Below are positions 1,341 to 29,226 of a DNA stretch of 64,000 nt, one piece after another (position 1 is the first letter of the stretch; every line of letters starts with the position of its first letter). Where the stretch lies: positions 1,612,001-1,676,000 of the forward strand of contig NZ_CP157199.1 of assembly GCF_039954625.1 (NCBI RefSeq), read 5' to 3'. This DNA comes from Pontimicrobium sp. SW4 (GTDB lineage Bacteria; Bacteroidota; Bacteroidia; Flavobacteriales; Flavobacteriaceae). The translations under genes were made by a program, and so were the position numbers. The notes below the pieces were generated by a model. It was not told the origin of the DNA, made no database searches, and saw only the letters and a list, made by a program, of their open reading frames with translations.

Positions 1341-1347
1341 CATCTAT

Positions 1348-2529: not shown

Positions 2530-2534
2530 AAAAA

Positions 2535-2556
2535 GGGTTGCCAAAAAAGACAACCC
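2535..2556. terminator. Terminator-like hairpin after the methyltransferase gene
   Basis: Perfect 6-bp stem GGGTTG/CAACCC around a 10-nt A-rich loop, starting 5 bp after the stop codon. The T-rich tail lies on the minus-strand reading (seven T after the stem), while the plus-strand reading is followed by A-rich sequence, so it may act as a weak or Rho-assisted terminator for the plus-strand gene. Confidence 0.45.
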
Positions 2557-2804
2557 AAAAATCCTTTATTACTAATAACATTAACCTTAAACTATAGTTT
2601 TACTAAAGGATTCACTCTATAATTATCACTAAAAATTTTATAGACAGTTAATTTACTGAATATTGTAAATTTCGAGTGTCTTATGTCAAAAATTTAAGTG
2701 TAAATTAACAGTTAAGCTTATCAAAACCTGTTTAAATATTGAACTAAATAATATATACTTTTAATACTTAGCATATTAAAGTATATTCGCAAAAAAATAG
2801 AATT

Positions 2805-3461: not shown

Positions 3462-3520
3462 AACCTTTATTTGTCAATTTTAAAACTAAACGAAAACTAT
3501 AGTCACTTATAAAACCAACA

Positions 3521-11960: not shown

Positions 11961-12221
11961 AAATAAAATTATTAGTTTTTGTAGGTTTTCAAATCGAGCT
12001 AATATAACAATTTTGTTAGTCCAAACACTATCTAAACAAGGCTTTTTTAAGACTTTTTATCAACAATATTTAGGATGATTTTAGTTAATAACTATAGGCA
12101 GATTTATTTTGATTTTTTAGACTTTTTATTGTCATTTACTCCAATAAAGTATAATTAAGGTATAGTTTTTGCCTTAATCAAGTAGATTTTATTATTTTTA
12201 ATGCAGAAAGGAACCAAATTT

Positions 12222-14774
12222 ATGGATGATAATTTTTCACCAAGAGTAAAAGATGTTATTGCTTATAGCAAGGAGGAAGCATTACGTTTAGGTCATGATT
12301 TTATTGGCACTGAACACTTAATGCTTGGTCTATTACGTGATGGAAATGGGAAAGCTATTGACATTTTAAGCGCTTTAGATATTGATTTAAATCACTTGAG
12401 ACGGAAAGTAGAAATATTAAGTCCTGCTAACCCAAACATTACGACCGCATCTAACGAAAAGAAAAACCTACATTTAACTAGACAAGCTGAACGTGCTTTA
12501 AAAACGACGTTTTTGGAAGCAAAATTATTCCAAAGTACATCAATTAATACTGCACATTTATTGCTTTGTATCTTAAGAAATGAAAACGACCCAACTACTA
12601 AACTATTAAACAAACTTAAAGTGGACTACGACAACGTGAAAGATCAATTTAAATATATGATAGCTAACGATGATGATTATATTGAATCTCCAAAGGCAGA
12701 ATCATTTTCAGATGAAGGTGATGATGCTTCTGATGACAATTCAAAAGATAATCCGTTTAGCCAATCAACAGCTAAAGGTGCAAAAAAATCTAAAACTCCA
12801 GTTTTAGATAATTTTGGTAGAGACCTAACCGCTATGGCAGAAGAAGGGAAATTAGACCCTGTTGTTGGAAGAGAAAAAGAAATACAACGTGTGTCTCAAA
12901 TTTTGAGTAGACGTAAAAAGAATAACCCTCTTTTAATCGGAGAACCAGGAGTTGGTAAATCAGCTATTGCAGAAGGATTAGCTAATAGAATAATTAGTAA
13001 AAAAGTTTCTAGAATTTTATTTAACAAGCGCGTAGTTACCCTTGATTTAGCAAGCTTAGTTGCTGGAACTAAATATAGAGGGCAGTTTGAAGAGCGTATG
13101 AAAGCAGTTATGAATGAGCTTGAAAAAAATGATGATATCATTTTGTTTATAGACGAAATTCATACCATCGTTGGTGCAGGTGGAGCAACAGGTAGTCTTG
13201 ATGCTTCAAATATGTTTAAGCCAGCTTTAGCAAGAGGAGAAATACAGTGTGTTGGAGCAACCACTCTAGATGAGTATAGACAATATATTGAAAAAGATGG
13301 TGCTTTAGAGCGTCGTTTCCAAAAAGTAATTGTAGAACCAACCACTGTTGATGAAACAATAGAAATACTAAACAATATTAAAGGTAAATATGAAGAGCAT
13401 CATAATGTAACTTATACAGATGAAGCTATTGAGGCCTGTGTAAAATTGACAAATCGTTATATGACAGAACGCTTCCTTCCAGATAAAGCTATTGATGCTT
13501 TAGATGAGGCTGGGTCGAGAGTACATATTACCAATATAAATGTTCCTGATCAAATTATTGAGCTAGAGAAACAACTAGAAGCTGTAAAAGAAACTAAAAA
13601 TTCGGTTGTAAAGAAGCAAAAATATGAAGAGGCTGCAAAGCTTAGAGATGATGAGAAACGTATAGAAAAGAGCCTCACTGAAGCTCAGGAGAAATGGGAA
13701 GAGGATTCCAAATTACATCGCGAAACAGTTTCTGAAGATAATGTTGCTGATGTTGTTTCTATGATGACAGGAATTCCTGTAAATAGAATAGCTCAAACCG
13801 AAAGTAATAAATTAGCAAAATTACCAGAATTAATAAAAGGCAAAGTTATTGGTCAAGATGAGGCTGTTAGTAAAGTGGTTAAAGCTATACAGCGTAATCG
13901 TGCTGGACTTAAAGATCCTAATAAGCCAATTGGGTCATTTATCTTTTTAGGGCAAACTGGTGTTGGTAAAACACAGTTAGCAAAAGTATTAGCCCGTGAA
14001 TTATTTGACAGTGAAGATGCTCTAGTAAGAGTAGACATGAGTGAGTATATGGAGAAGTTTGCTATTTCTCGTTTAATTGGAGCACCTCCAGGCTATGTTG
14101 GTTATGAAGAAGGAGGTCAATTAACCGAAAAAGTAAGACGCAAACCTTACGCAGTTGTATTACTTGACGAAATAGAAAAAGCACATCCTGATGTTTTTAA
14201 CATGTTACTACAAGTATTAGATGATGGTTTTTTAACTGATAGTCTAGGTAGAAAGATTGATTTTAGTAATACCATAATTATCATGACATCTAACATTGGA
14301 GCTAGAAAACTAAAAGATTTTGGTACTGGTGTTGGTTTTGGTACTTCTGCTCAAAAATCTCAAGCAGGAACACATTCTAAAAACATTATTGAAAATGCAC
14401 TAAAGAAAGCGTTTGCTCCAGAATTTCTAAATAGAATTGATGATGTTGTAGTATTTAATGTACTTGAAAGAGAAGATATAGACAAGATTATTGACATAGA
14501 ACTGGAAAAACTTTTAGCTAGAATTAAAGAGTTAGGATACACGCTCAAATTATCTAAAAAAGCTAAAACATTTATAGCAGATAAAGGGTTTGATAAGCAA
14601 TACGGTGCTCGTCCTTTAAAAAGAGCAATTCAAAAATATATTGAAGACGCTTTAGCAGAAGAAATTATTGTTTCTAAAATCCATGAAGGTGATATTATTA
14701 CTATGGATTATGAAAAAGATGCTACCGAATTAACTGTAAAAGTCAAGCATTCAGAAAAAACTACTGAATCGTAG
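12222..14774 (+). CDS. clpC: ATP-dependent Clp protease ATP-binding subunit ClpC
   Basis: A Hsp100/AAA+ unfoldase of 850 residues from this start: N-terminal Clp repeat domain ([15 protein letters not shown]), AAA1 with Walker [10 protein letters not shown] near residue 240 and Walker B ILFIDEIH, a middle region with a UVR-type motif ([15 protein letters not shown]) that marks ClpC rather than ClpB or ClpA, then AAA2 with GQTGVGKTQ near 577, ending in the Clp C-terminal D2 domain. It feeds proteins to ClpP. An in-frame ATG at 12201 would add seven residues (MQKGTKF); the start at 12222 is chosen because family members usually begin [10 protein letters not shown] and AGAAAGGA lies upstream. 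Monocistronic, with its own terminator. Confidence 0.93.
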
Positions 14775-14855: not shown

Positions 14856-15227
14856 ATGCTTAAGTCTCTAAAATATTCTTTTTGCACAATTGATGTTTAT
14901 AACGATTATGTTATCTCTCGCATTAATGAAGGCTTTCATTTAACGCCAGATAAAAACAAAATCTTAGAAGATATTGCAAACGATTATTTTATTGATAAAC
15001 CGTTTGTATATATTACACATAGAAAACATTCCTACTCAGTAGATCCTTCTATTTACTTACAAACTTCTAAAGTTAAAAATCTAATTGGATTTGCAGTTGT
15101 TGCAGAGGCACCATTATCAAAAGGAAATGCTGAAATTGAAAAATTGTTTTTAAACAAACCATTTGAAATATTCTCAGACTTAGATGACGCCATAAAATGG
15201 GCAAAATCTCTAGTGTCTAATGAATAA
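14856..15227 (+). CDS. Small STAS/SpoIIAA-like protein of unknown function
   Basis: A 123-residue soluble protein with alternating beta strands and helices. The motif FVYITHRKHSYSVDPSIY in the middle and the ending FEIFSDLDDAIKWAKSL resemble the fold pattern of SpoIIAA/STAS-like proteins common in flavobacteria, usually annotated as hypothetical. No catalytic residues stand out. Its stop codon overlaps the start (15220) of the broken zinc-finger gene downstream, so the two were probably translationally coupled. The role is unknown; the call rests on general pattern only. Confidence 0.6.
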   Translation: MLKSLKYSFCTIDVYNDYVISRINEGFHLTPDKNKILEDIANDYFIDKPFVYITHRKHSYSVDPSIYLQTSKVKNLIGFAVVAEAPLSKGNAEIEKLFLNKPFEIFSDLDDAIKWAKSLVSNE

Positions 15228-15553
15228 AAGCGAATTAAAGCATCTCGAAGAAAAAATTGCAGAAGAAATTTCTAAAACTGAAGCGGCAATAATTCATTAC
15301 AAAGAAACTCACCTAACCCATAGCTCCCGAAAACGCTATTGGTAGAATATCAAGAATGGATACTCTTAAAAACAAATCCATCAATGAGGCTGCTTTAAAA
15401 CAAGCTGAACAAAAACTTAAGAATCTTAAAGTTGGCCTATCAAATATTAATGATACCGATTTTGGATTGTGTTTTAAATGTCATAATCAAATACCTTTAG
15501 GTAGAATTTTATTAGTGCCTCATGCTCGCTATTGTGTTAATTGTGCTAGTTAA
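15220..15553 (+). pseudogene. DksA/TraR-type C4 zinc-finger protein, frameshifted
   Basis: Reading from ATG at 15220 gives a helical start (MNKSELKHLEEKIAEEISKT) that ends at a TAG at 15343-15345. The next frame, from 15317 on, continues with PIAPENAIGRISRMDTLKNK and the zinc finger CFKC...CVNC typical of short TraR/DksA proteins of Bacteroidota. The two parts are collinear with an intact family member but lie in different frames, with one surplus base (or a net +1 change) between about 15307 and 15317. An internal ATG at 15356 could yield a 65-residue zinc-finger fragment. It is either a real pseudogene or a sequencing error; no slippery site is visible. Confidence 0.75.
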
Positions 15554-15559
15554 TGCACT

Positions 15560-15625
15560 TCGTCATTGCGAACACAGTGAAGCAATCTCACAATACAGAA
15601 CTACAAATTATATAGATTGCTTTCG
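15560..15625. repeat. REP-like intergenic inverted repeat
   Basis: The segment starting CGTCATTGCGAACACAGTG carries GAAGCAATCT (15579-15588) and its near-complement AGATTGCTTTC (15614-15624), forming a stem with one bulged T. It resembles the short CGTCATTGCGA / GAAGCAATCT palindromic repeats scattered in many Bacteroidota genomes. It lies between the broken zinc-finger gene and the terminator of the giant adhesin gene. Confidence 0.55.
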
Positions 15626-15651
15626 TCGCTACGCTCTTAACAATAACGTAT

Positions 15652-15681
15652 AAAAAAAGGAGCTATTTCAAGACTCCTTTT
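15652..15681 (-). terminator. Intrinsic terminator of the first giant adhesin gene
   Basis: Stem AAAAGGAG/CTCCTTTT with an 11-nt loop; on the minus strand it is followed by a run of seven T and lies about 22 bp after the stop codon of the adhesin gene. A closely similar hairpin follows the paralogous gene at 22731-22758. Confidence 0.85.
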
Positions 15682-15703
15682 AATTATTTATCTAATAATC
15701 AAA

Positions 15704-18700
15704 CTATAACTTAGAAGCTAATATCTTCTTAGTTACAGTACCGTTGTTAGTAATTAATTTTACATAGTACATTTGATCAGCTCCATTAATACGTAATGGC
15801 ATCGTAGCATCTGCACCAGCTTTATAAGCTGCTTTTTTAGTTACTACTAATAATCCTTTAGTATCGTAAACCTCTACAGTTACGTCAGTATCAAACTCAA
15901 AGTTATAACTTACTGTTACATCTTGATTAAATGGTACTGGGTATACTTTAAAATCTAGCTCTGTCATCATATCCTCACCAGAACTATTGTTGGCAGAAGA
16001 TGGTGCGTCATCAACAACGCTCCATTTATATACTACAGAACATAAATCACTTTCGTTGCCACAGTCATCAGTAGCTTTAAAGCTTCTAATTTTCATATAA
16101 TTAGTGACTCCTGGTCCTGCTGCATCACCTATACAATCTACACGTAAAATTTTACAGTTAAGTGTGTTTTGCATATAATCTGTCTCAATCCAATTAGCAT
16201 CACAGTCTGGGAATTCGTCATTATTATTAGAATTCTTTAAGGCAATTAATTGTCCATTTAATCGTAATACCCAATCATTTAATGATTCCACAGGATTCGT
16301 ATTAGGGTTGTCTACGCCTTCTTCAAACGTTAACGTATACGTTCCCATAGTAGTTACAACTGATATGTAATTTGCTTGATTTCCAGAAGTTCCTACATTA
16401 GTGAACGTACCGTCCCAAACAAAGGTTATAAAGTTAAAATCAGGAATTCCTGGTGTTTGACATGTAAATTTATATACTGACCCTGGTGCATTACCACTAG
16501 GTGTTCCTGGTACATACGTGCTGTCGTCAGTGTCTCCAACAAAAGTTATTATTGGATCTGAGTCACAATTATCAGTTGCTGTAATATCAGCTACTTCAGC
16601 AAATGTTGGCGTTTCGGTAACTTCGCCAAAATCAACATCATCTGGACAGTTTACTATCACAGGTTTTGTCTCATCCTTGATAATAATTTTCTGTTCTACT
16701 TCTATACTATTACCACAAGCGTCTTCTACTTTATAGGTTCTAGTAATAGTTTCTGGACAATTACCATTATCACTCTCGTCCTTAACCCATGTTACTGTTG
16801 GTGTACTACAGTTATCGTCTGCATCTGTCACTACTGTAATATCTGGGTTTGGCACATCGTCTGTACACACTACATTAACATCAACTGGATTACTCGCAGT
16901 TGGTTTTGTTTCATCTTTTATTGTAATTATCTGTGTTCTTGTTTCTGCAACATTTCCACAAGCATCTGTGATATTCCATGTTCTGGTAATTGTACCATTA
17001 CAGTCAGTACCTTCTAAGGCGCTATCTACACCTTCTACTGTACCGTCGGCATCACAGTTATCTGTATAACCAAGACTTATCATATCTGGCACATCTGCTA
17101 AACAAGATACTGTTACTGCAGCTGGTGCAGAAGCCAATACAGGTGCTGTAGTATCTTTAACTGTTATTTTTTGAATAGATGTAATGGTGTTTCCACAATC
17201 ATCTGTCGCTTTCCATGTACGTGTTATTACTTCATCTGCACATAAAGATGCAGCTCTTTCTCCAGTTAACTTTACATCGTCAATAGCGATATCTTCATCA
17301 CCACTATCTAAAAAGTCAATAGTAATACGAATATCTAATGATGTTCCCGTTCCTGAAATATTAGAGATGAACTCTGCAAATACATCAGTAATTTCCGTTC
17401 CATCGCCAACACCATTAAAGTCAGTATCAAGTCTAGGCTTTTCGTTGGTTTCATTACCATCTGTACCAAGTTCAGATTCTACAGCTAAAATTGAATTATA
17501 GCCACCTCCATCAATTTGAACTTGTAATTTAACACTAGACGTTGTATCCCAATCTTCAGCCCCATCCGAAGAATCATCTTCGGCTAATTTGATCGCTAAT
17601 TTTAGGTTTGAAACATCAGTAATATCAATTCCTGTCCAGTTTAACTGAAGGTTATCTATATTACCACTACTTGTACCATCGGTATCATGTGCTGTATAGA
17701 ATGAATTACCTTGAACATTAGTATAATTTATACTTGACGGTAAGTTTGCATTGTTTATACGTCCAAAATAATCACTTGTACCTAATTCATCAATATCATC
17801 AGCAATAGATGGTGTATAAGTAATTGTAGCGTCTTCGAAATCTTCAAATAGCAACGTTTCTTCTCCTCCCCCGTTATTAGTTGATTCTTCATCACTAAAA
17901 GTAACAGTTGGTCTAGCACAATTATCAGTAGCTGTTGCAGTTCCTCCAGTATTAGATGGATCTGTAGATGCATCACATTCAATTGTAACATCAGCTGGTG
18001 TAAACGTTATTACAGGCTTAGTAGTATCGTTTACAGTAATAACTTGTGTTCTAGTAACTGCTTCATTTCCACATGTATCTTTTATATTCCATGTTCTAGT
18101 AATAGTTCCTCCGCATTCGCCGCCCACCAAATCTGTATCAACTCCTTCAACACTTCCGCCAGCATCACAGTTATCAGTCCAATCTAGACTAATCATTGCT
18201 GGCACGTCTTCAATACATTGTACAGTTATATTTTCTGGTGCTACATCAATTACTGGTATTGTTGTGTCGTCTACAGTAATAATTTGAGTTCTTGCTACTG
18301 CCTCATTACCACATGCATCTTTAACATTCCAAGTTCTTGTAATGGTTCCTCCACATTCACCTCCAACTAATTCACCGTCTACTCCTTGAACGGATCCACC
18401 TATTTGGCAATTATCTGTCCAATCTAAACTTATCATTGCTGGAACATCTTCAATACATTGTACTGTAATGTTTTCAGGTGCAGCGTCAATTACTGGTGCT
18501 GTATTATCAGAAATTGTAAAATATTTTGTGTAAGTCCCTGAAGTATTACCACAAAGATCGTGCGCTACAAAATCAATTGATAATTCTGCATAACATCCTC
18601 CTCCAGATTTAGTGACATCTGTAACTTCTATTACAATATCATTCGTTGCAGTGCAATTATCATGAAGAAGTGGTGCATTAAATAATTCTTGGTAAAGTGC

Positions 18701-21700
18701 AGCATAGAACCCTTGTTGAGTACTTGCAACGCTAAATGTTGAATTTATATTTAACTTATCACCAACACTTAATGTCGTTGTTGCATCTGATGGACAATCT
18801 GCTCCACTTTCAGTAAATAAATTAACAGTTTTTTTATCATGAACTTCTTGACCCCAAACAGGCGCCGATTGATCGCTACCTTGGTAGATAATCTTGAATG
18901 GAGGGTAAGAGTTACCACAAGCATCAGATACTGTGTACTCAAATGAGTTAATCCATCCATTACCACAATTAGATCCTGTTCTATGAGTAGTTTTCACTAC
19001 TGATAATCCACATTCTTCATGGAATAATGCAGCTATCTCAGCTTCTGTTGGTCCTTCGTAAGAATCTATACATGCATCTAAATCACTCATATCACTTGGA
19101 ATTGTTCCAATTAATTCTGGTGCTGTATTATCTTCACCGCTAAAGTTTTGTGTGAAATCGTACTCGTTTCCACATTCATCAGTTACTGTGTATGTATAAT
19201 GGAATGCCCACTTACATGCGTCTTCAGTTACTGTTAACTCAGACTTAGCTGATACTTTCCCACCACAATTATCTTCGAATATCTTCTCGATAGCGTGATC
19301 TTCTACTGCTGGGTTAGCTGCTAATGCATCTGCTAAACAAGCATTGATACCACTAGCTCCTTCTGGCAATTTCTCACCATCAATTAAGTTTGGTGCTGTT
19401 TGATCAGATCCCCAATAAGTTACCTTAACCGTTCCGTCATAAACGTTACCACAGTTATCTGCAACTTCGTATACAAATTGTACTGCCCAGTCACAAGTAT
19501 CATCACTAATAGTAATTGTATTTACTAATGTAGCAATTACATGACCACAAGCATCTGTAAATTGATCTGCGATAGATTGCTCTGCTGGTGCAGCTGGTGC
19601 TGAACATGCATCTACATTAGACATATTGAATTGTCCAACGTTTCCAGTATAAACTGGTGCTAATTTATCGATAAGCGTAATCTTTTGATCTTTTGTAGTT
19701 ACATTTCCACAATCATCTGTAGCTTTCCAAGTTCTAATAATTGTTGTTACACAAGCTTGCTTATCTTCTACATCTGTTTTAGTAATTGTTACACTTGAAC
19801 ATGCATCTCTTCCATATGCCATACCTGTGTTAGCTGGAGTAATATCTGCTTCACACTTCTCATCTAATTCTAATACAACATCTTCAGGAATATCTAAGCT
19901 TGGTGCAATAGTATCTACTATTCTATACTCTGCAGCTGTTGAAGAGCTCAATCCACAGTTATCTGTTACTGTAAATGTTACAGTAATTCTTCCTGTGTTT
20001 CCACACTCATCTGTTAACTCTTTTCCATTCCAGTCATTTGACCATGTAAGATCTTTATCACACATGTCCATTGCTTCTGCTCCACCATTAGTATGTAACC
20101 AATGTAAGAATGGAGAATAACATCCTTCTGTTGATGTTGGACAATCATGTTCTTGACCACACTCAACTATTAAATCTTGTGCTTCGTTTCCAATTGCTGG
20201 ACTGTTTGTATCTACTACATGGAAAGATGCAGTTGTTGTTGATACATTACCACACTGATCGTAAGCGTAGAAAGTTGTTCTATATTCTGTGTCACAAGAA
20301 TTTCCATAAACTCTGTAACGGAATTTCCAGTAAACTCCTGAACATCCGTCAGTAGCTGTTGCTCCTCCATTATTTCCTAACCAAGTTAACCATGCATGAT
20401 AGTTTGTTCCTGGGTAAGCTCCACCTCCTTGAGCATCTAAATCTGCTTGATCATAATCAGTGTTTTCTTTCCAATAATCTGGAATAGAACTATCACACTC
20501 AACTGTCATATCTGAAGCTGGTGTTACTTCTGGTGCTATACTATCTTCGATTGTGAAAGTAGCTGGTAAATCAACATCGTTTCCACATGCATCTGTTGCA
20601 GTGAATACTACATTAATATATCCAGTATATGAACCTTCTCCACATGATTCTTTTAAGTAATCACGAATATCGAAATCTTTATGCTTTGGATCTCCAGGGA
20701 AATCGTTTGTCCAAGTTACTCCTGAACAATCATCTTTAGCTGTAGCGTCTCCATTGTTATCTAACCATGTTTGGAATTGATCTACATTTCCTTCTCCATC
20801 ACATACTACAGTCTTGTTGTAAGCTGGAGTTGTTTCTGGGTCTTTAGTATCTACTATCTTAAATGTAGCATATGTTTTAGATTGGTTTCCACAAGAGTCT
20901 GTTACTGTAAAGATTACAGTTTTTTGTCCTGTTGCGCCACAGTCATCACTCATTGGTTGACTTGCTGCATTGTTTGTCCATACTAAATCCTCAGTAGCTG
21001 TACAGTTATCCTGTGCTGATGCGTTTGCATTTGTAGCTATCCAGTTGTTGTAATCTTCTATGTTTCCTTCACCATCACATTCTACTGTTAAATCTTCAGC
21101 TGCATTTAAAACTGATGGATTTACATTATCAAAGATAGTTACTGTCATACTTTCGTTAATAGTACGCCCACAGTTATCTGTAAAAGAATATGTTACTTCG
21201 AATGAAGCACAGTTAGAATCTGGTGCTGTATATTCTGGCTTAGCTAATCCGCTAATCTCACATGCACCTGTCATTCCATTTGAATAGTATAAATCTGGTA
21301 TTAAACCTTCGAAGTTATTTCTGTCTTCACATGAGATACTCATGTCTTGTGGTTGATTGAATACTGCTTGTTTTGCTGGTCTAACTGTAATAGTTTGTTT
21401 GTGCCATGCATTGTTCCCACATTCATCAGTTGCTTTCCACCATCTTTCGATGATTCCTCCTGCACATTCTTGACCTTCAACGATTGTTGAAACTTCTTCA
21501 TGTAACTTCGCTTTTCCGCTTGGTGCACAGTTATCTGTGTAAGGAATTGCTACTGCATCTGGAATCTTATCACAGTCTACAGTAATATCTTTAAGACCTT
21601 CTATAGCCTTTTCATTAAATACTGGTTCTGATTGATCGCTTCCTGAATATGTAATAGAAAATTCAAACGCATTATCATCACAGTAATCTTTTACTGTATA

Positions 21701-22366
21701 TACGTGAATCTCTACCCATCCGCAATCATCATTTTTTGTCTTTGTACGCTTAGATACTAATTCTCCGCTCACTTTTACGTGCTCACAGTTATCAGTATAT
21801 AACGCTGCAATCTCATTTGCTGTTGGTGCTATTGGGCGGTTGTCAAAGCATAGATCTAGGTCCAACTTATCTGCAATTAGTGCATTGTAAGCTGCTTTGT
21901 TTTGCTTTGGTACCCATGGCGCTGTTGCATCTCCTCCATTATACTTTACAGTAAATGGTGTTACTTCGCCAGCACACTTTACTGAATAAACATAATAGTA
22001 AGTCCAACTACAGTGTGTACTTCCTTTTGCAAATCCAGTGGCAACTCCCCATTCACCATCAACTCCTTGTTGAGCAGCTACTGGGTGAATTTGAAATTCT
22101 TCACTTGAATCATGGCATGCATCAAAGAATCCATCAAAGTAACCAGGAGCCATTAATTCTGACACTGATTTCATTGCTGGCACTTCATGCATACAGCCAT
22201 TAACAGGACCTAACTCCTCACCACCACCAGTGTTATTCGCTCCGGTGCCTTGTGCGTAAGATAAGCTCGTTAATGCTAAAAACATAAACAACATTAATGT
22301 TGATTTGCCTTTGTTTTGTAATCTCCCGAAAGAGCTACAACATTTGGTAAAATTGTTCATAAACAT
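15704..22366 (-). CDS. Giant secreted HYR-repeat protein with T9SS type A sorting domain (copy 1)
   Basis: About 2220 residues. A signal peptide (GKSTLMLFMFLALTSLSYAQ) is followed by some two dozen HYR/Ig-like repeats of 75-110 residues marked by TVECD, DNC and DxCGN cysteine motifs. Two adjacent repeats (VAPENITVQCIEDVPAMISL) are nearly identical. A different acidic domain starting LLFEDFEDATITYTP (about residues 1495-1700) interrupts one repeat. The last 80 residues (KVYPVPFNQDVTVSYNF ... KKILASKL) form a type A T9SS sorting domain, so the product is exported across the outer membrane and probably anchored or released. Likely an adhesin or surface scaffold (inference). A longer frame reaches 22417, but that codon overlaps the -7 element, and the paralog begins at the equivalent of 22366. 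Confidence 0.88.
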   Translation of the reverse strand: MFMNNFTKCCSSFGRLQNKGKSTLMLFMFLALTSLSYAQGTGANNTGGGEELGPVNGCMHEVPAMKSVSELMAPGYFDGFFDACHDSSEEFQIHPVAAQQGVDGEWGVATGFAKGSTHCSWTYYYVYSVKCAGEVTPFTVKYNGGDATAPWVPKQNKAAYNALIADKLDLDLCFDNRPIAPTANEIAALYTDNCEHVKVSGELVSKRTKTKNDDCGWVEIHVYTVKDYCDDNAFEFSITYSGSDQSEPVFNEKAIEGLKDITVDCDKIPDAVAIPYTDNCAPSGKAKLHEEVSTIVEGQECAGGIIERWWKATDECGNNAWHKQTITVRPAKQAVFNQPQDMSISCEDRNNFEGLIPDLYYSNGMTGACEISGLAKPEYTAPDSNCASFEVTYSFTDNCGRTINESMTVTIFDNVNPSVLNAAEDLTVECDGEGNIEDYNNWIATNANASAQDNCTATEDLVWTNNAASQPMSDDCGATGQKTVIFTVTDSCGNQSKTYATFKIVDTKDPETTPAYNKTVVCDGEGNVDQFQTWLDNNGDATAKDDCSGVTWTNDFPGDPKHKDFDIRDYLKESCGEGSYTGYINVVFTATDACGNDVDLPATFTIEDSIAPEVTPASDMTVECDSSIPDYWKENTDYDQADLDAQGGGAYPGTNYHAWLTWLGNNGGATATDGCSGVYWKFRYRVYGNSCDTEYRTTFYAYDQCGNVSTTTASFHVVDTNSPAIGNEAQDLIVECGQEHDCPTSTEGCYSPFLHWLHTNGGAEAMDMCDKDLTWSNDWNGKELTDECGNTGRITVTFTVTDNCGLSSSTAAEYRIVDTIAPSLDIPEDVVLELDEKCEADITPANTGMAYGRDACSSVTITKTDVEDKQACVTTIIRTWKATDDCGNVTTKDQKITLIDKLAPVYTGNVGQFNMSNVDACSAPAAPAEQSIADQFTDACGHVIATLVNTITISDDTCDWAVQFVYEVADNCGNVYDGTVKVTYWGSDQTAPNLIDGEKLPEGASGINACLADALAANPAVEDHAIEKIFEDNCGGKVSAKSELTVTEDACKWAFHYTYTVTDECGNEYDFTQNFSGEDNTAPELIGTIPSDMSDLDACIDSYEGPTEAEIAALFHEECGLSVVKTTHRTGSNCGNGWINSFEYTVSDACGNSYPPFKIIYQGSDQSAPVWGQEVHDKKTVNLFTESGADCPSDATTTLSVGDKLNINSTFSVASTQQGFYAALYQELFNAPLLHDNCTATNDIVIEVTDVTKSGGGCYAELSIDFVAHDLCGNTSGTYTKYFTISDNTAPVIDAAPENITVQCIEDVPAMISLDWTDNCQIGGSVQGVDGELVGGECGGTITRTWNVKDACGNEAVARTQIITVDDTTIPVIDVAPENITVQCIEDVPAMISLDWTDNCDAGGSVEGVDTDLVGGECGGTITRTWNIKDTCGNEAVTRTQVITVNDTTKPVITFTPADVTIECDASTDPSNTGGTATATDNCARPTVTFSDEESTNNGGGEETLLFEDFEDATITYTPSIADDIDELGTSDYFGRINNANLPSSINYTNVQGNSFYTAHDTDGTSSGNIDNLQLNWTGIDITDVSNLKLAIKLAEDDSSDGAEDWDTTSSVKLQVQIDGGGYNSILAVESELGTDGNETNEKPRLDTDFNGVGDGTEITDVFAEFISNISGTGTSLDIRITIDFLDSGDEDIAIDDVKLTGERAASLCADEVITRTWKATDDCGNTITSIQKITVKDTTAPVLASAPAAVTVSCLADVPDMISLGYTDNCDADGTVEGVDSALEGTDCNGTITRTWNITDACGNVAETRTQIITIKDETKPTASNPVDVNVVCTDDVPNPDITVVTDADDNCSTPTVTWVKDESDNGNCPETITRTYKVEDACGNSIEVEQKIIIKDETKPVIVNCPDDVDFGEVTETPTFAEVADITATDNCDSDPIITFVGDTDDSTYVPGTPSGNAPGSVYKFTCQTPGIPDFNFITFVWDGTFTNVGTSGNQANYISVVTTMGTYTLTFEEGVDNPNTNPVESLNDWVLRLNGQLIALKNSNNNDEFPDCDANWIETDYMQNTLNCKILRVDCIGDAAGPGVTNYMKIRSFKATDDCGNESDLCSVVYKWSVVDDAPSSANNSSGEDMMTELDFKVYPVPFNQDVTVSYNFEFDTDVTVEVYDTKGLLVVTKKAAYKAGADATMPLRINGADQMYYVKLITNNGTVTKKILASKL

Positions 22367-22375
22367 AACATTTAG
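18861..22375. repeat. 3.5-kb direct repeat, copy 1 (shared adhesin N-terminal region)
   Basis: This block matches 23806-27320 at a constant offset of 4945 bp with no indels that I could see. I noticed about ten base differences, most between 18900 and 19160. It encodes the first 1150 or so residues of the giant adhesin plus 9 bp upstream of the start codon. Identity stops abruptly at 18861 (at the codons for GSDQSAP) and at 22375. Confidence 0.93.
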
Positions 22376-22414
22376 TATTAGTTGACTACTGCATTTACAA
22401 AAGGTTTTATAAAA

Positions 22415-22470
22415 CAAAAGTAAATGAGCTAATAATCAAGAAATTGTTGTGCTATTAAACAATTATTTTT
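22415..22470 (-). promoter_or_regulatory. Promoter and dyad upstream of adhesin copy 1
   Basis: Minus-strand TACTTTTG (22415-22422) fits the Bacteroidota -7 consensus and predicts a transcript start near 22408, 42 nt before the start codon at 22366. Just upstream lies a 43-bp stretch (22428-22470) shared with the paralog, containing the dyad AATTGTT-N9-AACAATT (22442-22464), placed where a regulator could contact the -33 region. No clean TTG box at 19 bp spacing is present, which fits an activator-dependent promoter. Confidence 0.5.
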
Positions 22471-22728
22471 TTGAAAAAGCTTTGAATAACGTAACAATAT
22501 AAGTTACCTAAGAAGCTTTTATTTAAATAGGCAAACTTATAACCTAAACCATCATCTCTAAAATTAAACTTTTATTAACATTTAGAAAAGGTTATTTAAC
22601 TAAAATATAAGCTTTTAATCAGATAATAATGAAATTATTATTTAAACAAAATACTTAAAAAAGCTACCTTATTACTAACATCGTAATAATATGGTTAATA
22701 ATGCTATTCCTTTTAAAAATTACACATA
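22471..22728. other. AT-rich spacer between the two adhesin genes
   Basis: Together with its flanks this forms a 425-bp gap between the adhesin starts and stops. Apart from the promoter/dyad on one side and the terminator on the other I see only very AT-rich sequence without an open frame, RNA gene or clear repeat. Confidence 0.6.
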
Positions 22729-22730
22729 AA

Positions 22731-22758
22731 AAAAGGAGTCATTTTCATGACTCCTTTT
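22731..22758 (-). terminator. Intrinsic terminator of the second giant adhesin gene
   Basis: Perfect 11-bp stem AAAAGGAGTCA/TGACTCCTTTT with a 6-nt loop; on the minus strand it runs into eight T. It lies about 33 bp after the stop codon and resembles the terminator of the tandem paralog, so the duplication included the 3' flank or both ends share ancestry. Confidence 0.9.
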
Positions 22759-22790
22759 AAATTTATGATAATTACTTATCTAATTAGTTA

Positions 22791-25700
22791 CTATAGTTTA
22801 GAAGCTAATATCTTCTTAGTTACAGTTCCTTTATTAGTAATTAATTTTACATAGTACATTTGATCTGCACCATTGATACTTAATGGCATAGTAGCATCTG
22901 TTCCAGCTGAGTAAGCTGCTGTCTTAGACATTACTAATAATCCTCTAGTATCGTAAACTTCTACAGTTACATTAGTATCAAACTCAAACATATACTTAAC
23001 AGTTACATCTTTGTTGAATGGTACTGGATAAGCTTGGAAGTCTAATGATACATCATCTCCATCGTTAGCAGATGAAGGAGCTCCACCTTCTTGCTCTACT
23101 TGTTCTAATTCAGGAGAACTAGTTCTAGCTCCATTTGTTCCAGGAACATCCGCCGTATAAGACCAGAATACTGAAACTGTGTCTGCAGTGTTTCCACATG
23201 TGTCTGCAACACTATAATCAAGTCTTAGTACAAATTGACGTACATAACCAGTATTAGTAGCTACAGGAGAGAAACCATAAATAGTACCACCTACAATACT
23301 TTGTACTGTATTATTACAATTATCAGTTGCAGGTAATTCATCATAAGCAGCATAAGCAACTACCCAGTTTGGATCACCTCCATTAAAGAATCCTGCAGGA
23401 TTATGACCTAAATCAATTGTATTACTAAAATCAGTTTCCCATGGAGTCCAAGATGTGCTAGGCGCATCAACTACTGGTGCAACTGTATCAGCAGTTTTGT
23501 GACCTTTGTAGTATACTTCTGAAGCATTACCACAATTATCTCTAGCTACTAATCCTAATACAATATTACTTTCACAACCATTAGATGTAGTTTCTTTACT
23601 AACAACTTCGATTACGATATCTGCATCAGCTGTACAATTATCAGTTACTGCTGGGTTTGCATAAAGATTTACTAAGAAACCATTGAAATCATAAGTAACA
23701 TATTGGTTAAAAGTATCTCCAACTTCTAATGATACTGATGCATCATCAGGACAAACTCCAGATACAGAGTTATCTATCCAGTTCTTCCAATCGAAAGTCC
23801 ATTCTGGCGCCGATTGATCGCTACCTTGGTAGATAATCTTGAATGGAGGGTAAGCATTACCACAAGCATCAGATACTGTGTACTCAAATGAGTTAATCCA
23901 TCCATTACCACAATTAGATCCTGTTCTATGAGTAGTTTTCACTACTGATAATCCACATTCTTCATGGAATAATGCAGCTATCTCAGCTTCTGTTGGTCCT
24001 TCATAAGAATCTATACATGCATCTAAATCACTCATATCACTTGGAATTGTTCCAATTAATTCTGGTGCTGTATTATCTTCTCCACTAAACTCTTGTTTGA
24101 AATCGTACTCGTTTCCACATTCATCAGTTACTGTGTATGTATAATGGAATGCCCACTTACATGCGTCTTCAGTTACTGTTAACTCAGACTTAGCTGATAC
24201 TTTCCCACCACAATTATCTTCGAATATCTTCTCGATAGCGTGATCTTCTACTGCTGGGTTAGCTGCTAATGCATCTGCTAAACAAGCATTGATACCACTA
24301 GCTCCTTCTGGCAATTTCTCACCATCAATTAAGTTTGGTGCTGTTTGATCAGATCCCCAATAAGTTACCTTAACCGTTCCGTCATAAACGTTACCACAGT
24401 TATCTGCAACTTCGTATACAAATTGTACTGCCCAGTCACAAGTATCATCACTAATAGTAATTGTATTTACTAATGTAGCAATTACATGACCACAAGCATC
24501 TGTAAATTGATCTGCGATAGATTGCTCTGCTGGTGCAGCTGGTGCTGAACATGCATCTACATTAGACATATTGAATTGTCCAACGTTTCCAGTATAAACT
24601 GGTGCTAATTTATCGATAAGCGTAATCTTTTGATCTTTTGTAGTTACATTTCCACAATCATCTGTAGCTTTCCAAGTTCTAATAATTGTTGTTACACAAG
24701 CTTGCTTATCTTCTACATCTGTTTTAGTAATTGTTACACTTGAACATGCATCTCTTCCATATGCCATACCTGTGTTAGCTGGAGTAATATCTGCTTCACA
24801 CTTCTCATCTAATTCTAATACAACATCTTCAGGAATATCTAAGCTTGGTGCAATAGTATCTACTATTCTATACTCTGCAGCTGTTGAAGAGCTCAATCCA
24901 CAGTTATCTGTTACTGTAAATGTTACAGTAATTCTTCCTGTGTTTCCACACTCATCTGTTAACTCTTTTCCATTCCAGTCATTTGACCATGTAAGATCTT
25001 TATCACACATGTCCATTGCTTCTGCTCCACCATTAGTATGTAACCAATGTAAGAATGGAGAATAACATCCTTCTGTTGATGTTGGACAATCATGTTCTTG
25101 ACCACACTCAACTATTAAATCTTGTGCTTCGTTTCCAATTGCTGGACTGTTTGTATCTACTACATGGAAAGATGCAGTTGTTGTTGATACATTACCACAC
25201 TGATCGTAAGCGTAGAAAGTTGTTCTATATTCTGTGTCACAAGAATTTCCATAAACTCTGTAACGGAATTTCCAGTAAACTCCTGAACATCCGTCAGTAG
25301 CTGTTGCTCCTCCATTATTTCCTAACCAAGTTAACCATGCATGATAGTTTGTTCCTGGGTAAGCTCCACCTCCTTGAGCATCTAAATCTGCTTGATCATA
25401 ATCAGTGTTTTCTTTCCAATAATCTGGAATAGAACTATCACACTCAACTGTCATATCTGAAGCTGGTGTTACTTCTGGTGCTATACTATCTTCGATTGTG
25501 AAAGTAGCTGGTAAATCAACATCGTTTCCACATGCATCTGTTGCAGTGAATACTACATTAATATATCCAGTATATGAACCTTCTCCACATGATTCTTTTA
25601 AGTAATCACGAATATCGAAATCTTTATGCTTTGGATCTCCAGGGAAATCGTTTGTCCAAGTTACTCCTGAACAATCATCTTTAGCTGTAGCGTCTCCATT

Positions 25701-27311
25701 GTTATCTAACCATGTTTGGAATTGATCTACATTTCCTTCTCCATCACATACTACAGTCTTGTTGTAAGCTGGAGTTGTTTCTGGGTCTTTAGTATCTACT
25801 ATCTTAAATGTAGCATATGTTTTAGATTGGTTTCCACAAGAGTCTGTTACTGTAAAGATTACAGTTTTTTGTCCTGTTGCGCCACAGTCATCACTCATTG
25901 GTTGACTTGCTGCATTGTTTGTCCATACTAAATCCTCAGTAGCTGTACAGTTATCCTGTGCTGATGCGTTTGCATTTGTAGCTATCCAGTTGTTGTAATC
26001 TTCTATGTTTCCTTCACCATCACATTCTACTGTTAAATCTTCAGCTGCATTTAAAACTGATGGATTTACATTATCAAAGATAGTTACTGTCATACTTTCG
26101 TTAATAGTACGCCCACAGTTATCTGTAAAAGAATATGTTACTTCGAATGAAGCACAGTTAGAATCTGGTGCTGTATATTCTGGCTTAGCTAATCCGCTAA
26201 TCTCACATGCACCTGTCATTCCATTTGAATAGTATAAATCTGGTATTAAACCTTCGAAGTTATTTCTGTCTTCACATGAGATACTCATGTCTTGTGGTTG
26301 ATTGAATACTGCTTGTTTTGCTGGTCTAACTGTAATAGTTTGTTTGTGCCATGCATTGTTCCCACATTCATCAGTTGCTTTCCACCATCTTTCGATGATT
26401 CCTCCTGCACATTCTTGACCTTCAACGATTGTTGAAACTTCTTCATGTAACTTCGCTTTTCCGCTTGGTGCACAGTTATCTGTGTAAGGAATTGCTACTG
26501 CATCTGGAATCTTATCACAGTCTACAGTAATATCTTTAAGACCTTCTATAGCCTTTTCATTAAATACTGGTTCTGATTGATCGCTTCCTGAATATGTAAT
26601 AGAAAATTCAAACGCATTATCATCACAGTAATCTTTTACTGTATACACGTGAATCTCTACCCATCCGCAATCATCATTTTTTGTCTTTGTACGCTTAGAT
26701 ACTAATTCTCCGCTCACTTTTACGTGCTCACAGTTATCAGTATATAACGCTGCAATCTCATTTGCTGTTGGTGCTATTGGGCGGTTGTCAAAGCATAGAT
26801 CTAGGTCCAACTTATCTGCAATTAGTGCATTGTAAGCTGCTTTGTTTTGCTTTGGTACCCATGGCGCTGTTGCATCTCCTCCATTATACTTTACAGTAAA
26901 TGGTGTTACTTCGCCAGCACACTTTACTGAATAAACATAATAGTAAGTCCAACTACAGTGTGTACTTCCTTTTGCAAATCCAGTGGCAACTCCCCATTCA
27001 CCATCAACTCCTTGTTGAGCAGCTACTGGGTGAATTTGAAATTCTTCACTTGAATCATGGCATGCATCAAAGAATCCATCAAAGTAACCAGGAGCCATTA
27101 ATTCTGACACTGATTTCATTGCTGGCACTTCATGCATACAGCCATTAACAGGACCTAACTCCTCACCACCACCAGTGTTATTCGCTCCGGTGCCTTGTGC
27201 GTAAGATAAGCTCGTTAATGCTAAAAACATAAACAACATTAATGTTGATTTGCCTTTGTTTTGTAATCTCCCGAAAGAGCTACAACATTTGGTAAAATTG
27301 TTCATAAACAT
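22791..27311 (-). CDS. Secreted HYR-repeat protein with T9SS type A sorting domain (copy 2)
   Basis: 1506 residues. The first 1150 or so are almost identical to those of the downstream giant gene: same signal peptide, same 12 or so cysteine-marked HYR-like repeats. After the motif GSDQSAP the sequences diverge sharply: the next domain (EWTFDWKNWIDNSVSGVCPD) is only distantly similar, about eleven repeats of the longer paralog are missing, and a unique domain with WTPWETDFSNTIDLGHNP and DTCGNTADTVSVFW follows. The final 80 residues are again a T9SS type A domain (QAYPVPFNKDVTVKYMF ... KKILASKL), similar but not identical to the paralog. Probably an outer-surface or released adhesin. Start ATG at 27311; Met3 is an alternative. 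Confidence 0.88.
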   Translation of the reverse strand: MFMNNFTKCCSSFGRLQNKGKSTLMLFMFLALTSLSYAQGTGANNTGGGEELGPVNGCMHEVPAMKSVSELMAPGYFDGFFDACHDSSEEFQIHPVAAQQGVDGEWGVATGFAKGSTHCSWTYYYVYSVKCAGEVTPFTVKYNGGDATAPWVPKQNKAAYNALIADKLDLDLCFDNRPIAPTANEIAALYTDNCEHVKVSGELVSKRTKTKNDDCGWVEIHVYTVKDYCDDNAFEFSITYSGSDQSEPVFNEKAIEGLKDITVDCDKIPDAVAIPYTDNCAPSGKAKLHEEVSTIVEGQECAGGIIERWWKATDECGNNAWHKQTITVRPAKQAVFNQPQDMSISCEDRNNFEGLIPDLYYSNGMTGACEISGLAKPEYTAPDSNCASFEVTYSFTDNCGRTINESMTVTIFDNVNPSVLNAAEDLTVECDGEGNIEDYNNWIATNANASAQDNCTATEDLVWTNNAASQPMSDDCGATGQKTVIFTVTDSCGNQSKTYATFKIVDTKDPETTPAYNKTVVCDGEGNVDQFQTWLDNNGDATAKDDCSGVTWTNDFPGDPKHKDFDIRDYLKESCGEGSYTGYINVVFTATDACGNDVDLPATFTIEDSIAPEVTPASDMTVECDSSIPDYWKENTDYDQADLDAQGGGAYPGTNYHAWLTWLGNNGGATATDGCSGVYWKFRYRVYGNSCDTEYRTTFYAYDQCGNVSTTTASFHVVDTNSPAIGNEAQDLIVECGQEHDCPTSTEGCYSPFLHWLHTNGGAEAMDMCDKDLTWSNDWNGKELTDECGNTGRITVTFTVTDNCGLSSSTAAEYRIVDTIAPSLDIPEDVVLELDEKCEADITPANTGMAYGRDACSSVTITKTDVEDKQACVTTIIRTWKATDDCGNVTTKDQKITLIDKLAPVYTGNVGQFNMSNVDACSAPAAPAEQSIADQFTDACGHVIATLVNTITISDDTCDWAVQFVYEVADNCGNVYDGTVKVTYWGSDQTAPNLIDGEKLPEGASGINACLADALAANPAVEDHAIEKIFEDNCGGKVSAKSELTVTEDACKWAFHYTYTVTDECGNEYDFKQEFSGEDNTAPELIGTIPSDMSDLDACIDSYEGPTEAEIAALFHEECGLSVVKTTHRTGSNCGNGWINSFEYTVSDACGNAYPPFKIIYQGSDQSAPEWTFDWKNWIDNSVSGVCPDDASVSLEVGDTFNQYVTYDFNGFLVNLYANPAVTDNCTADADIVIEVVSKETTSNGCESNIVLGLVARDNCGNASEVYYKGHKTADTVAPVVDAPSTSWTPWETDFSNTIDLGHNPAGFFNGGDPNWVVAYAAYDELPATDNCNNTVQSIVGGTIYGFSPVATNTGYVRQFVLRLDYSVADTCGNTADTVSVFWSYTADVPGTNGARTSSPELEQVEQEGGAPSSANDGDDVSLDFQAYPVPFNKDVTVKYMFEFDTNVTVEVYDTRGLLVMSKTAAYSAGTDATMPLSINGADQMYYVKLITNKGTVTKKILASKL

Positions 27312-27320
27312 AACATTTAG
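23806..27320. repeat. 3.5-kb direct repeat, copy 2 (shared adhesin N-terminal region)
   Basis: Partner of 18861-22375. Near-perfect identity covers the region from 9 bp before the start codon to the codons for GSDQSAP. Protein-level differences that I could see are few, for example DFKQEFSGEDN here against DFTQNFSGEDN in copy 1, and ACGNAYPPF against ACGNSYPPF. Confidence 0.93.
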
Positions 27321-27714
27321 ATTTAATTAAAATTATTTTAACATTTTACAACGGCATTTCTGCCGTCTACATAACTTAAAATAGGTACTGTAAATACACA
27401 GTAGACAAAGGGCGTTAACATAATGGCATTACTAATTAAAATTAATAATGCAATTTGCTGTAAATCAATGAATAACTAATGTTAAACATTAATAATAAAA
27501 TGTGCTAATAATCAATAAATTGTTGTGCTATTAAACAATTATTTTTGGGTAGTAAAACAATTTTAATAATGATGTAGGTTTTCATATAAAATTGTTAGAA
27601 CTTTTAAATAAATATACGAGATACTTATATAATTCAAAATTAGAGCATCTTCTACGTTATTCCAAATGAGTTCAACTAATATTTAGGTATTTAAACGAAA
27701 AATAAGGTCTAGTT
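27321..27714. other. Intergenic region upstream of adhesin copy 2
   Basis: AT-rich, no gene. It holds a small hairpin ACGGCA-TTTC-TGCCGT (27351-27366), a second pairing GTCTAC/GTAGAC (27365-27370 with 27401-27406) and, further up, the 43-bp element shared with copy 1. The bases where copy 1 has its TACTTTTG box read TATTATTA here, so the same promoter is not conserved. Confidence 0.6.
27504..27546 (-). promoter_or_regulatory. Shared 43-bp element with dyad upstream of adhesin copy 2
   Basis: Same 43-bp sequence as 22428-22470 with one mismatch, including the dyad AATTGTT-N9-AACAATT (27518-27540). It lies 207 bp from the start codon, against 76 bp in copy 1, because a different, longer spacer separates it from the coding repeat. 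A regulator-binding site is a plausible reading; no regulator is known. Confidence 0.45.
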
Positions 27715-29226
27715 TTAATTCAAAAGCTCCTCATTATCAATAGATATGGTACTTATGAAGGAAATTGAGGCTACAATATCGTGATGCAAAAACCTATCTT
27801 CATTTACAAAAGAAACAGCTTTTCTATAAGTAGTTAAGAACGTTTCAAGAAAAGATGATGTCTTTAATGGTTTTCTAAAATATAAGGCTTGGGAAGCATT
27901 TAACAGTTCAATTGCCAAAACACGTTCTACATTATTTACTAATTGAAAAGCTTGTGTGGCAGCATTAGCTCCCATACTTACATGATCTTCTTGTCCGTTA
28001 GACGAAACAATCGAATCTACACTTGCAGGCGTAGCTAATTGCTTATTGGCACTAACAATACTTGCCGCAGTATATTGTGGAATCATAAAACCAGAATTTA
28101 ATCCAGGATTATCCACTAAAAATGGTGGTAAGCCTCTATTGCCAGAAACTAACTGAAATGTTCTTCTCTCTGAAATGTTTCCAATTTCTGCCATAGCAAT
28201 CTTTAAATAGTCTAAAGCCAAGGCTAATGGTTGACCATGAAAATTACCTCCTGAAATAATTTTATCTTCACCTATAAATATATTAGGATTATCAGTAACT
28301 GAATTAATTTCGGTAACAAATGTTTTCTTCACAAACTCTAATGCATCTTTAGTTGCTCCATGTACTTGAGGAATACATCTAAAAGAATATGGATCCTGTA
28401 CATGTTTCTTTTTTTGAGCTATTAATTCGCTGTCTTGCAAAAACTCGCGAATTCTTTCAGCAGTTTTTAATTGCCCATTATGAGGTCGTACTAAATGTAC
28501 CAGTTCATTAAAAGGTTCTATTCTACCATCATAAGCATCAATAGATAACGCTCCTATTAAATCGGCTAAATACGAAAGTTTATAAGACTTTAATAATAAG
28601 TAGACTCCATAAGCACTCATAAATTGAGTCCCATTTAGTAGCGCTAGTCCTTCTTTAGATTTAAGTTCTATAGGCTTCCAATTATATTTTGCATTTATTT
28701 CACTAGCCTTTTTAACTTCTCCTTTATACCATACTTCTCCATTACCTATTAAAGGAAGTGATAAATGTGCCAAAGGAGCCAAATCGCCAGAAGCTCCTAA
28801 AGAGCCTTGTGTATAAACTACTGGAAGAATATCATTATTATAGAAATCAACTAAACGATTAACAGTTTCTAATTGGCTTCCACTATGTCCGTAACTTAAA
28901 GATTGAATTTTAAGTAACAGCATAAGCTTTACTACTTCTCGAGGAACTTCATCTCCTGTACCGCATGCATGCGACTTCATTAAGTTTTCTTGAAGTTTTG
29001 TTAAGTTCTTATTACTTATCTTAACATTATAAAGCGAACCAAATCCTGTATTAATTCCATAAATAGGCTCTTTGTGGGATGCCATTTTATTATCTAAATA
29101 GGTTCTGCATTTTATAATACTATCTATAGCTTCCTTAGATAGTTCTAGTTTTTTCTCTTGAGTTAGAATATCATTAATAATATTCAAGTCTAATATATCG
29201 CGAGTAATATAATGTATGTTGCTCAT
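27715..29226 (-). CDS. hutH: Histidine ammonia-lyase
   Basis: A 503-residue aromatic amino-acid lyase. Ala145-Ser146-Gly147 in GSLGASGDLAPL cyclise to the MIO electrophile. Ser-His at 85-86 (NLMKSHACG) is the selectivity motif of histidine lyases rather than Phe/Tyr lyases. YGINTGFG supplies the catalytic Tyr, and SGNFHGQPLA and SSNGQEDHVSMG are family motifs. It converts L-histidine to trans-urocanate, the first step of the Hut pathway. No hutU, hutI or hutG genes are adjacent, so the rest of the pathway must lie elsewhere or the gene serves another route. It appears to be monocistronic. Confidence 0.93.
   Translation of the reverse strand: MSNIHYITRDILDLNIINDILTQEKKLELSKEAIDSIIKCRTYLDNKMASHKEPIYGINTGFGSLYNVKISNKNLTKLQENLMKSHACGTGDEVPREVVKLMLLLKIQSLSYGHSGSQLETVNRLVDFYNNDILPVVYTQGSLGASGDLAPLAHLSLPLIGNGEVWYKGEVKKASEINAKYNWKPIELKSKEGLALLNGTQFMSAYGVYLLLKSYKLSYLADLIGALSIDAYDGRIEPFNELVHLVRPHNGQLKTAERIREFLQDSELIAQKKKHVQDPYSFRCIPQVHGATKDALEFVKKTFVTEINSVTDNPNIFIGEDKIISGGNFHGQPLALALDYLKIAMAEIGNISERRTFQLVSGNRGLPPFLVDNPGLNSGFMIPQYTAASIVSANKQLATPASVDSIVSSNGQEDHVSMGANAATQAFQLVNNVERVLAIELLNASQALYFRKPLKTSSFLETFLTTYRKAVSFVNEDRFLHHDIVASISFISTISIDNEELLN

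What the first reader, a model, noticed from the sequence alone, without database searches (positions are those of the whole stretch)
15704..27323. Tandem giant adhesin genes with identical 3.5-kb fronts and divergent ends
The two minus-strand genes share 18861-22375 and 23806-27320 at a fixed offset of 4945 bp with only about ten mismatches noticed, including the first 9 bp upstream of the start. The next domain is only distantly similar, the rest differs in repeat number, and the tail domains are similar but not identical. A simple recent tandem duplication would leave the whole genes alike; this mosaic suggests gene conversion of the front part, or module exchange at the GSDQSAP codons, which recur in several repeats. 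It could be a system for switching or diversifying surface ends on a constant base.
Basis: partly seen in the sequence, partly recalled or inferred. Interest (0 to 1): 0.75.

Follow-up and report, generated by a model that had tools for sequence, protein, structure and literature searches.

The report
Tandem surface genes sharing copied front
Two neighbouring giant surface-protein genes of a marine flavobacterium carry almost identical first halves but old, different ends, most likely because one gene's front was recently copied over the other's; the same patchwork is seen in related species and resembles known adhesin gene pairs of other bacteria.

Summary
In detail: 9 mismatches in 3515 bp, one 2548-bp exact run, and 8 of the 9 mismatches within 292 bp of the tail boundary. 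Both genes encode HYR-like, type IX-secreted proteins between hutH and a clp gene, as in four relatives. The tails are old: copy 1's first tail domain groups with S0862 and G2 (support 100/97), and joining it with copy 2's is rejected (p 2e-4). In the front, copies resemble others of their own genome; groupings expected from tails are rejected. Relatives show shorter homogenised patches. Best reading: concerted evolution, with a recent gene conversion from the upstream gene (copy 2) over copy 1. Signal-peptide types suggest that direction. Tail modules were also exchanged at ordinary inter-domain linkers. No recombinase was found among 22 neighbouring ORFs, no invertible segment, and no direct evidence of programmed switching. 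The kind is known (Helicobacter bab/hom genes; gingipain/HagA genes). Unexpected extras: a leader element tied to this gene family, and synonymous divergence between species lower in most of the array than in flanking genes.

The parts
15704..22366 (-). copy 1 (long, second in the array), 2220 aa, HYR-like repeats and T9SS type A sorting domain
22791..27311 (-). copy 2 (short, first in the array), 1506 aa
18861..22375 (-). homogenised front of copy 1 (9 mismatches to copy 2)
23806..27320 (-). homogenised front of copy 2
19153..21700 (-). exactly identical run (copy 1); partner 24098-26645 in copy 2
18910..19152 (-). zone with 8 of the 9 mismatches, near the tail boundary
18512..18859 (-). first tail domain of copy 1 (type shared with S0862_C33 and G2_C4); limits approximate
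17213..17896 (-). inserted non-HYR stretch in the copy 1 tail, present in S0862_C33 and G2_C4, its motif not found in Paq_C3; limits approximate
23082..23804 (-). variable tail domains D1-D2 of copy 2
15707..15970 (-). T9SS sorting domain region of copy 1 (last 88 aa)
22794..23057 (-). T9SS sorting domain region of copy 2 (last 88 aa)
22441..22463 (-). 23-bp leader element upstream of copy 1
27517..27539 (-). 23-bp leader element upstream of copy 2
27715..29226 (-). hutH, conserved upstream neighbour
12201..14774 (+). Clp-type AAA ATPase, conserved downstream neighbour

Best explanation
This is an old tandem array of secreted HYR-like surface proteins under concerted evolution. The copies have carried different C-terminal ends for much longer than their fronts have been alike. 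Their shared N-terminal front (signal peptide plus HYR-like stalk domains) is repeatedly overwritten by homologous recombination between copies. In this genome the front of the first gene (copy 2) was recently copied over that of the second (copy 1). The tract starts 9 bp before the ATG, where homology begins, and stops near the tails, where homology ends. Shown: sequence identity, tail relationships, mosaic patches in relatives. Inferred: RecA-type gene conversion as the mechanism, its direction, and an adhesin function. Over longer times whole tail domains are also exchanged at domain linkers, and alleles probably move between species.
For: (1) Fronts: copy1/copy2 99.74% identical; dS 0.014 over 320 codons (380 to 60 aa before the tail), against 0.40-0.78 to relatives and 1.36 between the copies' own first tail domains. 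(2) Trees of front 1174-3200 (7 rows; S0862_C14 left out as too short): the A copies are identical, Paq copies 100/100, S0862_C15+C33 99/99; by-tail clades rejected, p 1.2e-70 and 4.3e-41 (the identical A rows were left free in these tests, so they rest on the S0862, Paq and G5 rows). First tail domain (9 rows): A_c1+S0862_C33+G2_C4 100/97; A_c1+A_c2 rejected, p 2e-4. (3) Elsewhere: S0862 copies range from 57 to 100% along the front, Paq copies from 67 to 99% (150-bp windows). Paq contigs share 121-123 identical bp on both sides of an assembly gap at 745-1174, so an identical tract of about 670 bp is inferred. G2 contigs break at 355 and 3205, as expected of a collapsed repeat. (4) Direction: first genes encode MFMNNFTKCCSS in 5 of 5; relatives' internal starts MFMSN in 2 of 3 (Paq_C9n, S0862_C14n), MFMNN in 1 of 3 (S0862_C15n). 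Copy 1 here has the first-gene type, while the bases just upstream of it resemble the Paq internal start. (5) At sites 3465/3466 copy 1 has the pair seen only in G2_C4. (6) The same flanks, hutH and clp, at the array ends in 5 of 5 genomes.
Against: Relatives' copies are mostly pieces of draft assemblies; gene order there is partly inferred (S0862_C14 to C33 by a 140-bp identical overlap). S0862 fronts are not one clade in the 2300-3000 tree, and in the 1850-2250 block S0862_C14 sides with this genome (81/82; with G5 100/100), so homogenisation is incomplete and alleles cross species. Of the 8 clustered mismatch sites G2_C4 agrees with copy 1 at 3, with copy 2 at 4, with neither at 1; at 3465 Paq_C3 also has copy 1's base, and S0862_C33 has copy 2's at both. 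The copy 2 tail clade is weak (44/65). In the sorting domain A_c1 sits with G2_C4 (73/33), not with A_c2. G5 has a single copy. The reads behind this assembly were not available.
Confidence: 0.85

Rival explanations
1. Recent whole-gene tandem duplication followed by replacement of one tail by unrelated DNA.
For: Near identity of fronts is what a fresh duplicate shows; G5 has only one gene between the same flanks.
Against: Arrays of two or more genes with the same two broad tail types stand between the same flanks in Paq and S0862 (in Paq the long gene's first tail domain is of another type); upstream DNA differs from base 22376 on, except short elements.
Confidence: 0.07
2. Active switching system: recombination between fronts and sorting domains swaps or deletes tails within a population.
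For: Shared arms at both ends with different cassettes between; module swap in Paq_C3; P0006/P0008 with identical ends and a different middle.
Against: No recombinase among 22 scanned neighbouring ORFs (at E 1e-10); no long high-identity inverted repeats in 15000-28000; the long tail is conserved between species (A_c1-G2_C4 91% nt over 2.5 kb, about 0.3 kb of it front). P0006/P0008 could be two strains or an assembly chimera.
Confidence: 0.12
3. Assembly or polishing artefact duplicated one front.
For: The long identical repeat is hard to assemble; relatives' contigs break there.
Against: The contig is 3.43 Mb; copies keep 9 differences, distinct leaders and distinct tails; relatives independently show repeated fronts.
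Confidence: 0.04
4. Strong purifying selection, not recombination, keeps the fronts alike.
For: dN/dS of the front is 0.16-0.35 between species.
Against: Synonymous sites are also nearly identical between copies (dS 0.014) but differ by 0.40-0.78 between species.
Confidence: 0.01

Closest known systems
Helicobacter pylori babA/babB(/babC) and homA/homB outer-membrane protein paralogs (PMC4552749 and PMC2795765, passages seen)
   Same: Paralogs with near-identical parts and divergent parts; some segments group by strain (concerted evolution), others by gene; gene conversion by intragenomic recombination proposed.
   Different: In bab genes the variable part is in the middle and CT repeats give phase variation; here a multi-domain HYR-like stalk with a T9SS signal in a tandem array, the front homogenised. 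TRF found only two rows in the array, both a 240-bp domain-sized repeat in the copy 1 tail; its score threshold could miss short tracts.
Porphyromonas gingivalis kgp/rgpA/hagA adhesin-domain genes (PMC5266723, passages seen)
   Same: T9SS-secreted Bacteroidota surface proteins; modular adhesin domains rearranged; identical repeats break assemblies; gene conversion suggested.
   Different: Gingipain genes carry proteases and CAD/DUF2436 domains; the genes here carry HYR_4C domains.
Rhs / CdiA-type genes with constant core and variable tip (recalled, not searched)
   Same: Constant front, exchangeable end.
   Different: Those tips are toxins with immunity genes (recalled); no search for such was made here, and both ends here carry T9SS sorting domains.

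Membership tests
Adhesin paralogs under concerted evolution (bab/hom kind) | Paralogs in one genome more alike than orthologs over part of the gene | tested here: met
   identities; trees and AU tests; S0862 only in part
Adhesin paralogs under concerted evolution (bab/hom kind) | Another part of the gene groups by gene type, not genome | tested here: met
   First tail domain; copy 1 type 100/97, copy 2 type only 44/65; Paq_C3 is an exception
Adhesin paralogs under concerted evolution (bab/hom kind) | Demonstrated adhesion by the variable region | not testable with these tools
   Needs binding assays
T9SS type A secreted surface protein | C-terminal sorting domain | tested here: met
   TIGR04183 30.4 and 32.7 bits, cut-off 23; Pfam PF18962 25.8 and 26.2, just under its 27 cut-off
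T9SS type A secreted surface protein | Secretion machinery in the genome | tested here: met
   GldK 594 bits, SprA 2832 bits, both over cut-off; over cut-off in 0 of 14 control genomes each; other components not tested
T9SS type A secreted surface protein | N-terminal signal peptide | not tested
   Hydrophobic stretch ending ...LSYAQ read by eye; no predictor was run
HYR-like domain protein | HYR_4C domains (PF23237) | tested here: met
   136.2 and 45.5 bits, cut-off 27
Programmed switching (shufflon or invertible) locus | Site-specific recombinase nearby | tested here: not met
   22 of 42 other ORFs of 100 aa or more in the window scanned in Pfam or NCBIfam, none a recombinase; enzymes elsewhere not tested
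Programmed switching (shufflon or invertible) locus | Invertible segment with long inverted repeats | tested here: not met
   15000-28000: longest arms 33 nt at 73%; best identity shown 90% over 20 nt, a palindrome present in both fronts (25 of 59 pairs shown)

The most novel reading that the evidence does not exclude
The array is a cross-species recombination platform: conserved leader, homogenised stalk and conserved sorting domain act as homology arms through which end modules are exchanged between copies and between species, so that a constant base carries changing surface ends.
Probability: 0.25. Interest if true: 0.6.

Novelty: new member of a known kind. Interest (0 to 1): 0.42.

Why it matters
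It gives a clear natural example, in a flavobacterium, of how a repeated surface gene can keep a uniform stalk while its ends differ. The cases I met in the literature are from host-associated pathogens. It also warns that short-read assemblies of such loci break and may miscount copies.

Tried and rejected
Fold prediction of the inserted copy 1 domain gave mean pLDDT 45.8 and was not used. The copy 2 tail model (pLDDT 73.9) gave no PDB match at E<=0.001; the top rows were mostly cadherin domains with TM-scores under 0.3, so no binding fold is claimed. Rfam found nothing over the gathering score in 22000-27900. RNAalifold on the 21 long leaders gave no convincing consensus structure. My first idea that copy 2's first tail domain was unusually diverged (dS about 1.5 to S0862_C14, Paq_C9 and G5) was dropped: flanking genes show dS 0.81-1.58 between the same species. 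Literature searches for this gene family: 'HYR domain' + Flavobacteri + adhesin gave 1 paper (on ice-binding proteins); 'HYR-like domain' + Bacteroidota 0; Pontimicrobium + genome 0; in two wider searches the listed titles and abstract starts (20 of 42 papers; 10 of 176) showed no description.

Full report
Labels. A = this genome; A_c1 and A_c2 = copy 1 (15704-22366) and copy 2 (22791-27311). S0862_C11/C14/C15/C33, Paq_C3/C9/C19, G2_C4/C6 and G5 = pieces on contigs of four relatives; 'n' marks the start of the next gene on the same contig. Front coordinates count from window base 22375 (copy 1) towards the tail, 1-3515.

What was checked. The two minus-strand genes are as described: 9 differences in 3515 bp, a 2548-bp exact run, and sharp loss of similarity on both sides. 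The front occurs full length only twice in the 3.44-Mb genome. Both proteins hit HYR_4C and the T9SS type A sorting domain, and the genome encodes GldK and SprA. The name 'adhesin' is an inference from this architecture.

Relatives. A search of 60 genomes found matches in 30. G004, a fifth genome of the same genus (390 contigs), had no match. hutH lies beyond the first start and the clp gene beyond the last end in all four: on one contig in G5, on separate contigs joined to the two array ends in the others. Copies: 2 here; 2 in Paq and 3 in S0862, counted from starts and ends on fragments; G2 has one start and one long end with a break between; G5 has one complete gene.

Ends are old, fronts are young. 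The copy 1 tail aligns in pieces with S0862_C33, G2_C4 and, distally, Paq_C3. Its first tail domain is 90% identical to those of S0862_C33 and G2_C4 but 40% to copy 2's; copy 2's is 57-63% identical to those of S0862_C14, Paq_C9 and G5. In the front 1174-3200 the two A copies are identical, the Paq copies group at 100/100 and S0862_C15+C33 at 99/99; groupings expected from tails are rejected, in tests that rest on the S0862, Paq and G5 rows because the identical A rows were left free. Results that do not fit a simple picture: in 2300-3000 the three S0862 fronts are not one clade (weak branches), and in 1850-2250 S0862_C14 groups with this genome and G5 (100/100) away from the other S0862 copies, i.e. 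alleles are shared across species. The sorting domains split by lineage (A and G2 against the rest, 100/100), with A_c1 next to G2_C4 rather than A_c2 (73/33).

Tract limits. At the 5' side the match begins 9 bp before the ATG, where copies share CTAAATGTT or nearly so; farther upstream the two copies differ except for short conserved elements. First-gene starts encode MFMNNFTKCCSS in 5 of 5. The internal starts seen in relatives encode MFMSN in 2 of 3 and MFMNN in 1 of 3. Copy 1 here has the first-gene type, so the likely donor is copy 2. At the 3' side the pair of bases at sites 3465/3466 of copy 1 is found only in G2_C4 among 7 relatives' rows (at 3465 alone also in Paq_C3); of the 8 clustered sites G2_C4 agrees with copy 1 at 3, with copy 2 at 4 and with neither at 1. 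So the 3' limit is only roughly placed, and five of the differences, in 17 bp, may be a small separate patch in copy 1.

Conversion elsewhere. Paq copies share identical contig ends on both sides of a gap (121-123 bp each), which implies an identical stretch of about 670 bp within copies that are otherwise about 84-86% alike. S0862 copies range from 57 to 100% in 150-bp windows. In G2 the break points at 355 and 3205 suggest a collapsed front of almost the same extent as here; that is an inference.

Module exchange. Paq_C3 combines a long-type distal tail with a first tail domain of the S0862_C15 type (support 100/99). Metagenome proteins P0006 and P0008 are identical over residues 1-823 and over the last 506, with unlike middles of 351 and 377 residues; the middle of P0008 is closer to P0022 than to P0006 or P0007, the rows compared. 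These could be two copies, two strains or a chimeric assembly. The downstream joint is the same kind of linker (..TAP) as GSDQSAP here. Such linkers close several domains of the front, so they need not be a recombination signal.

Cross-species exchange. Synonymous divergence from this genome to S0862 is 0.39-0.42 in the last 380 codons of the front and 0.43 in the long tail, against 0.81-1.07 in hutH, clp and gyrA; to G2 it is 0.25 in the long tail (0.05-0.62 in 90-codon blocks) against 0.75-0.95; to G5 0.50 in the front against 0.92-1.32. Third-position G+C is alike (0.19-0.21). To Paq the front value is 0.75-0.82 against 0.88-1.58. The first tail domain of copy 2 is an exception: about 1.5 to S0862_C14, Paq_C9 and G5. 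Homologous import between species is a plausible reason for the low values; other constraints on synonymous sites were not excluded.

Mechanism and rivals. RecA-dependent gene conversion between tandem copies explains a front that is young and tails that are old. A whole-gene duplication with a fresh tail would not explain similar tail types between the same flanks in relatives. A switching machine is not excluded at low rates, but no recombinase or invertible segment was seen in what was scanned.

Comparison with the known. Concerted evolution with variable segments is described for H. pylori babA/babB and homA/homB (PMC4552749, PMC2795765: passages), and domain shuffling with suggested gene conversion for T9SS proteins of P. 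gingivalis (PMC5266723: passages). This array is therefore a new member of a known kind in a different protein family. No Rfam family over its gathering score covers the leaders of this window, and no paper on this gene family turned up in the searches listed under Tried and rejected.

Noticed in passing
window 22441-22463 and 27517-27539 (-); loci L039-L086: A 23-bp element (ATTGTTTAATAGCACAACAATTT) stands upstream of both genes and nowhere else in the genome at up to 3 mismatches. At up to 2 mismatches it occurs at 23 sites in 19 of 299 family genomes (reversed control: 1 site); 21 of 23 sites lie upstream of genes whose products begin MFM[NS]NFT or hold FMNNFTK near the start. Of 14 loci found by protein, 13 have it at 2 mismatches or fewer; the 14th lacks the gene start. 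It begins 97-103 bp before the ATG in the internal genes seen and 198-238 bp in nearly all others. Sites beyond 2 mismatches were not sought in the 299 genomes, so its constancy may be overstated. Role unknown: operator, promoter or leader RNA.
   Followed up: partly
about 40-90 bp upstream of the ATG in long leaders, e.g. L065, L053, L067: Many of the 21 long leaders can form a hairpin of about 6-7 bp with a short loop whose stem letters differ between species with pairing kept (single-sequence folds, read by eye); a consensus fold did not confirm a common structure.
   Followed up: partly
array versus hutH, clp, gyrA (L053-L062): Synonymous divergence from this genome is roughly half or less in the front and long tail compared with flanking genes for S0862, G2 and G5; the first tail domain of copy 2 is an exception.
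   Followed up: partly
hutH, G2 versus S0862 (L060, L053): hutH dS is 0.22 while clp and gyrA are 0.54 and 0.53, as if DNA next to the array had also been exchanged recently.
   Followed up: no
window 56601-59486 (+) and from about 62900 beyond the window end (L063): Two more HYR-like large genes lie nearby: a 961-aa protein with a T9SS type B signal, and a frame of about 2456 aa that runs out of the window.
   Followed up: no
L046 (JAADHG010000032.1, titled Chlorobiota MAG): This record carries a relative (48% identity in its best segment) with the same leader element; possibly a misplaced contig.
   Followed up: no
S0862_C33 and G2_C4 tails (L055, L059): G2_C4 has a BspA-like (PF03382) block before the sorting domain and S0862_C33 looks alike there by eye; Pfam shows none in copy 1 nor in the listing for Paq_C3 (P0014).
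   Followed up: no
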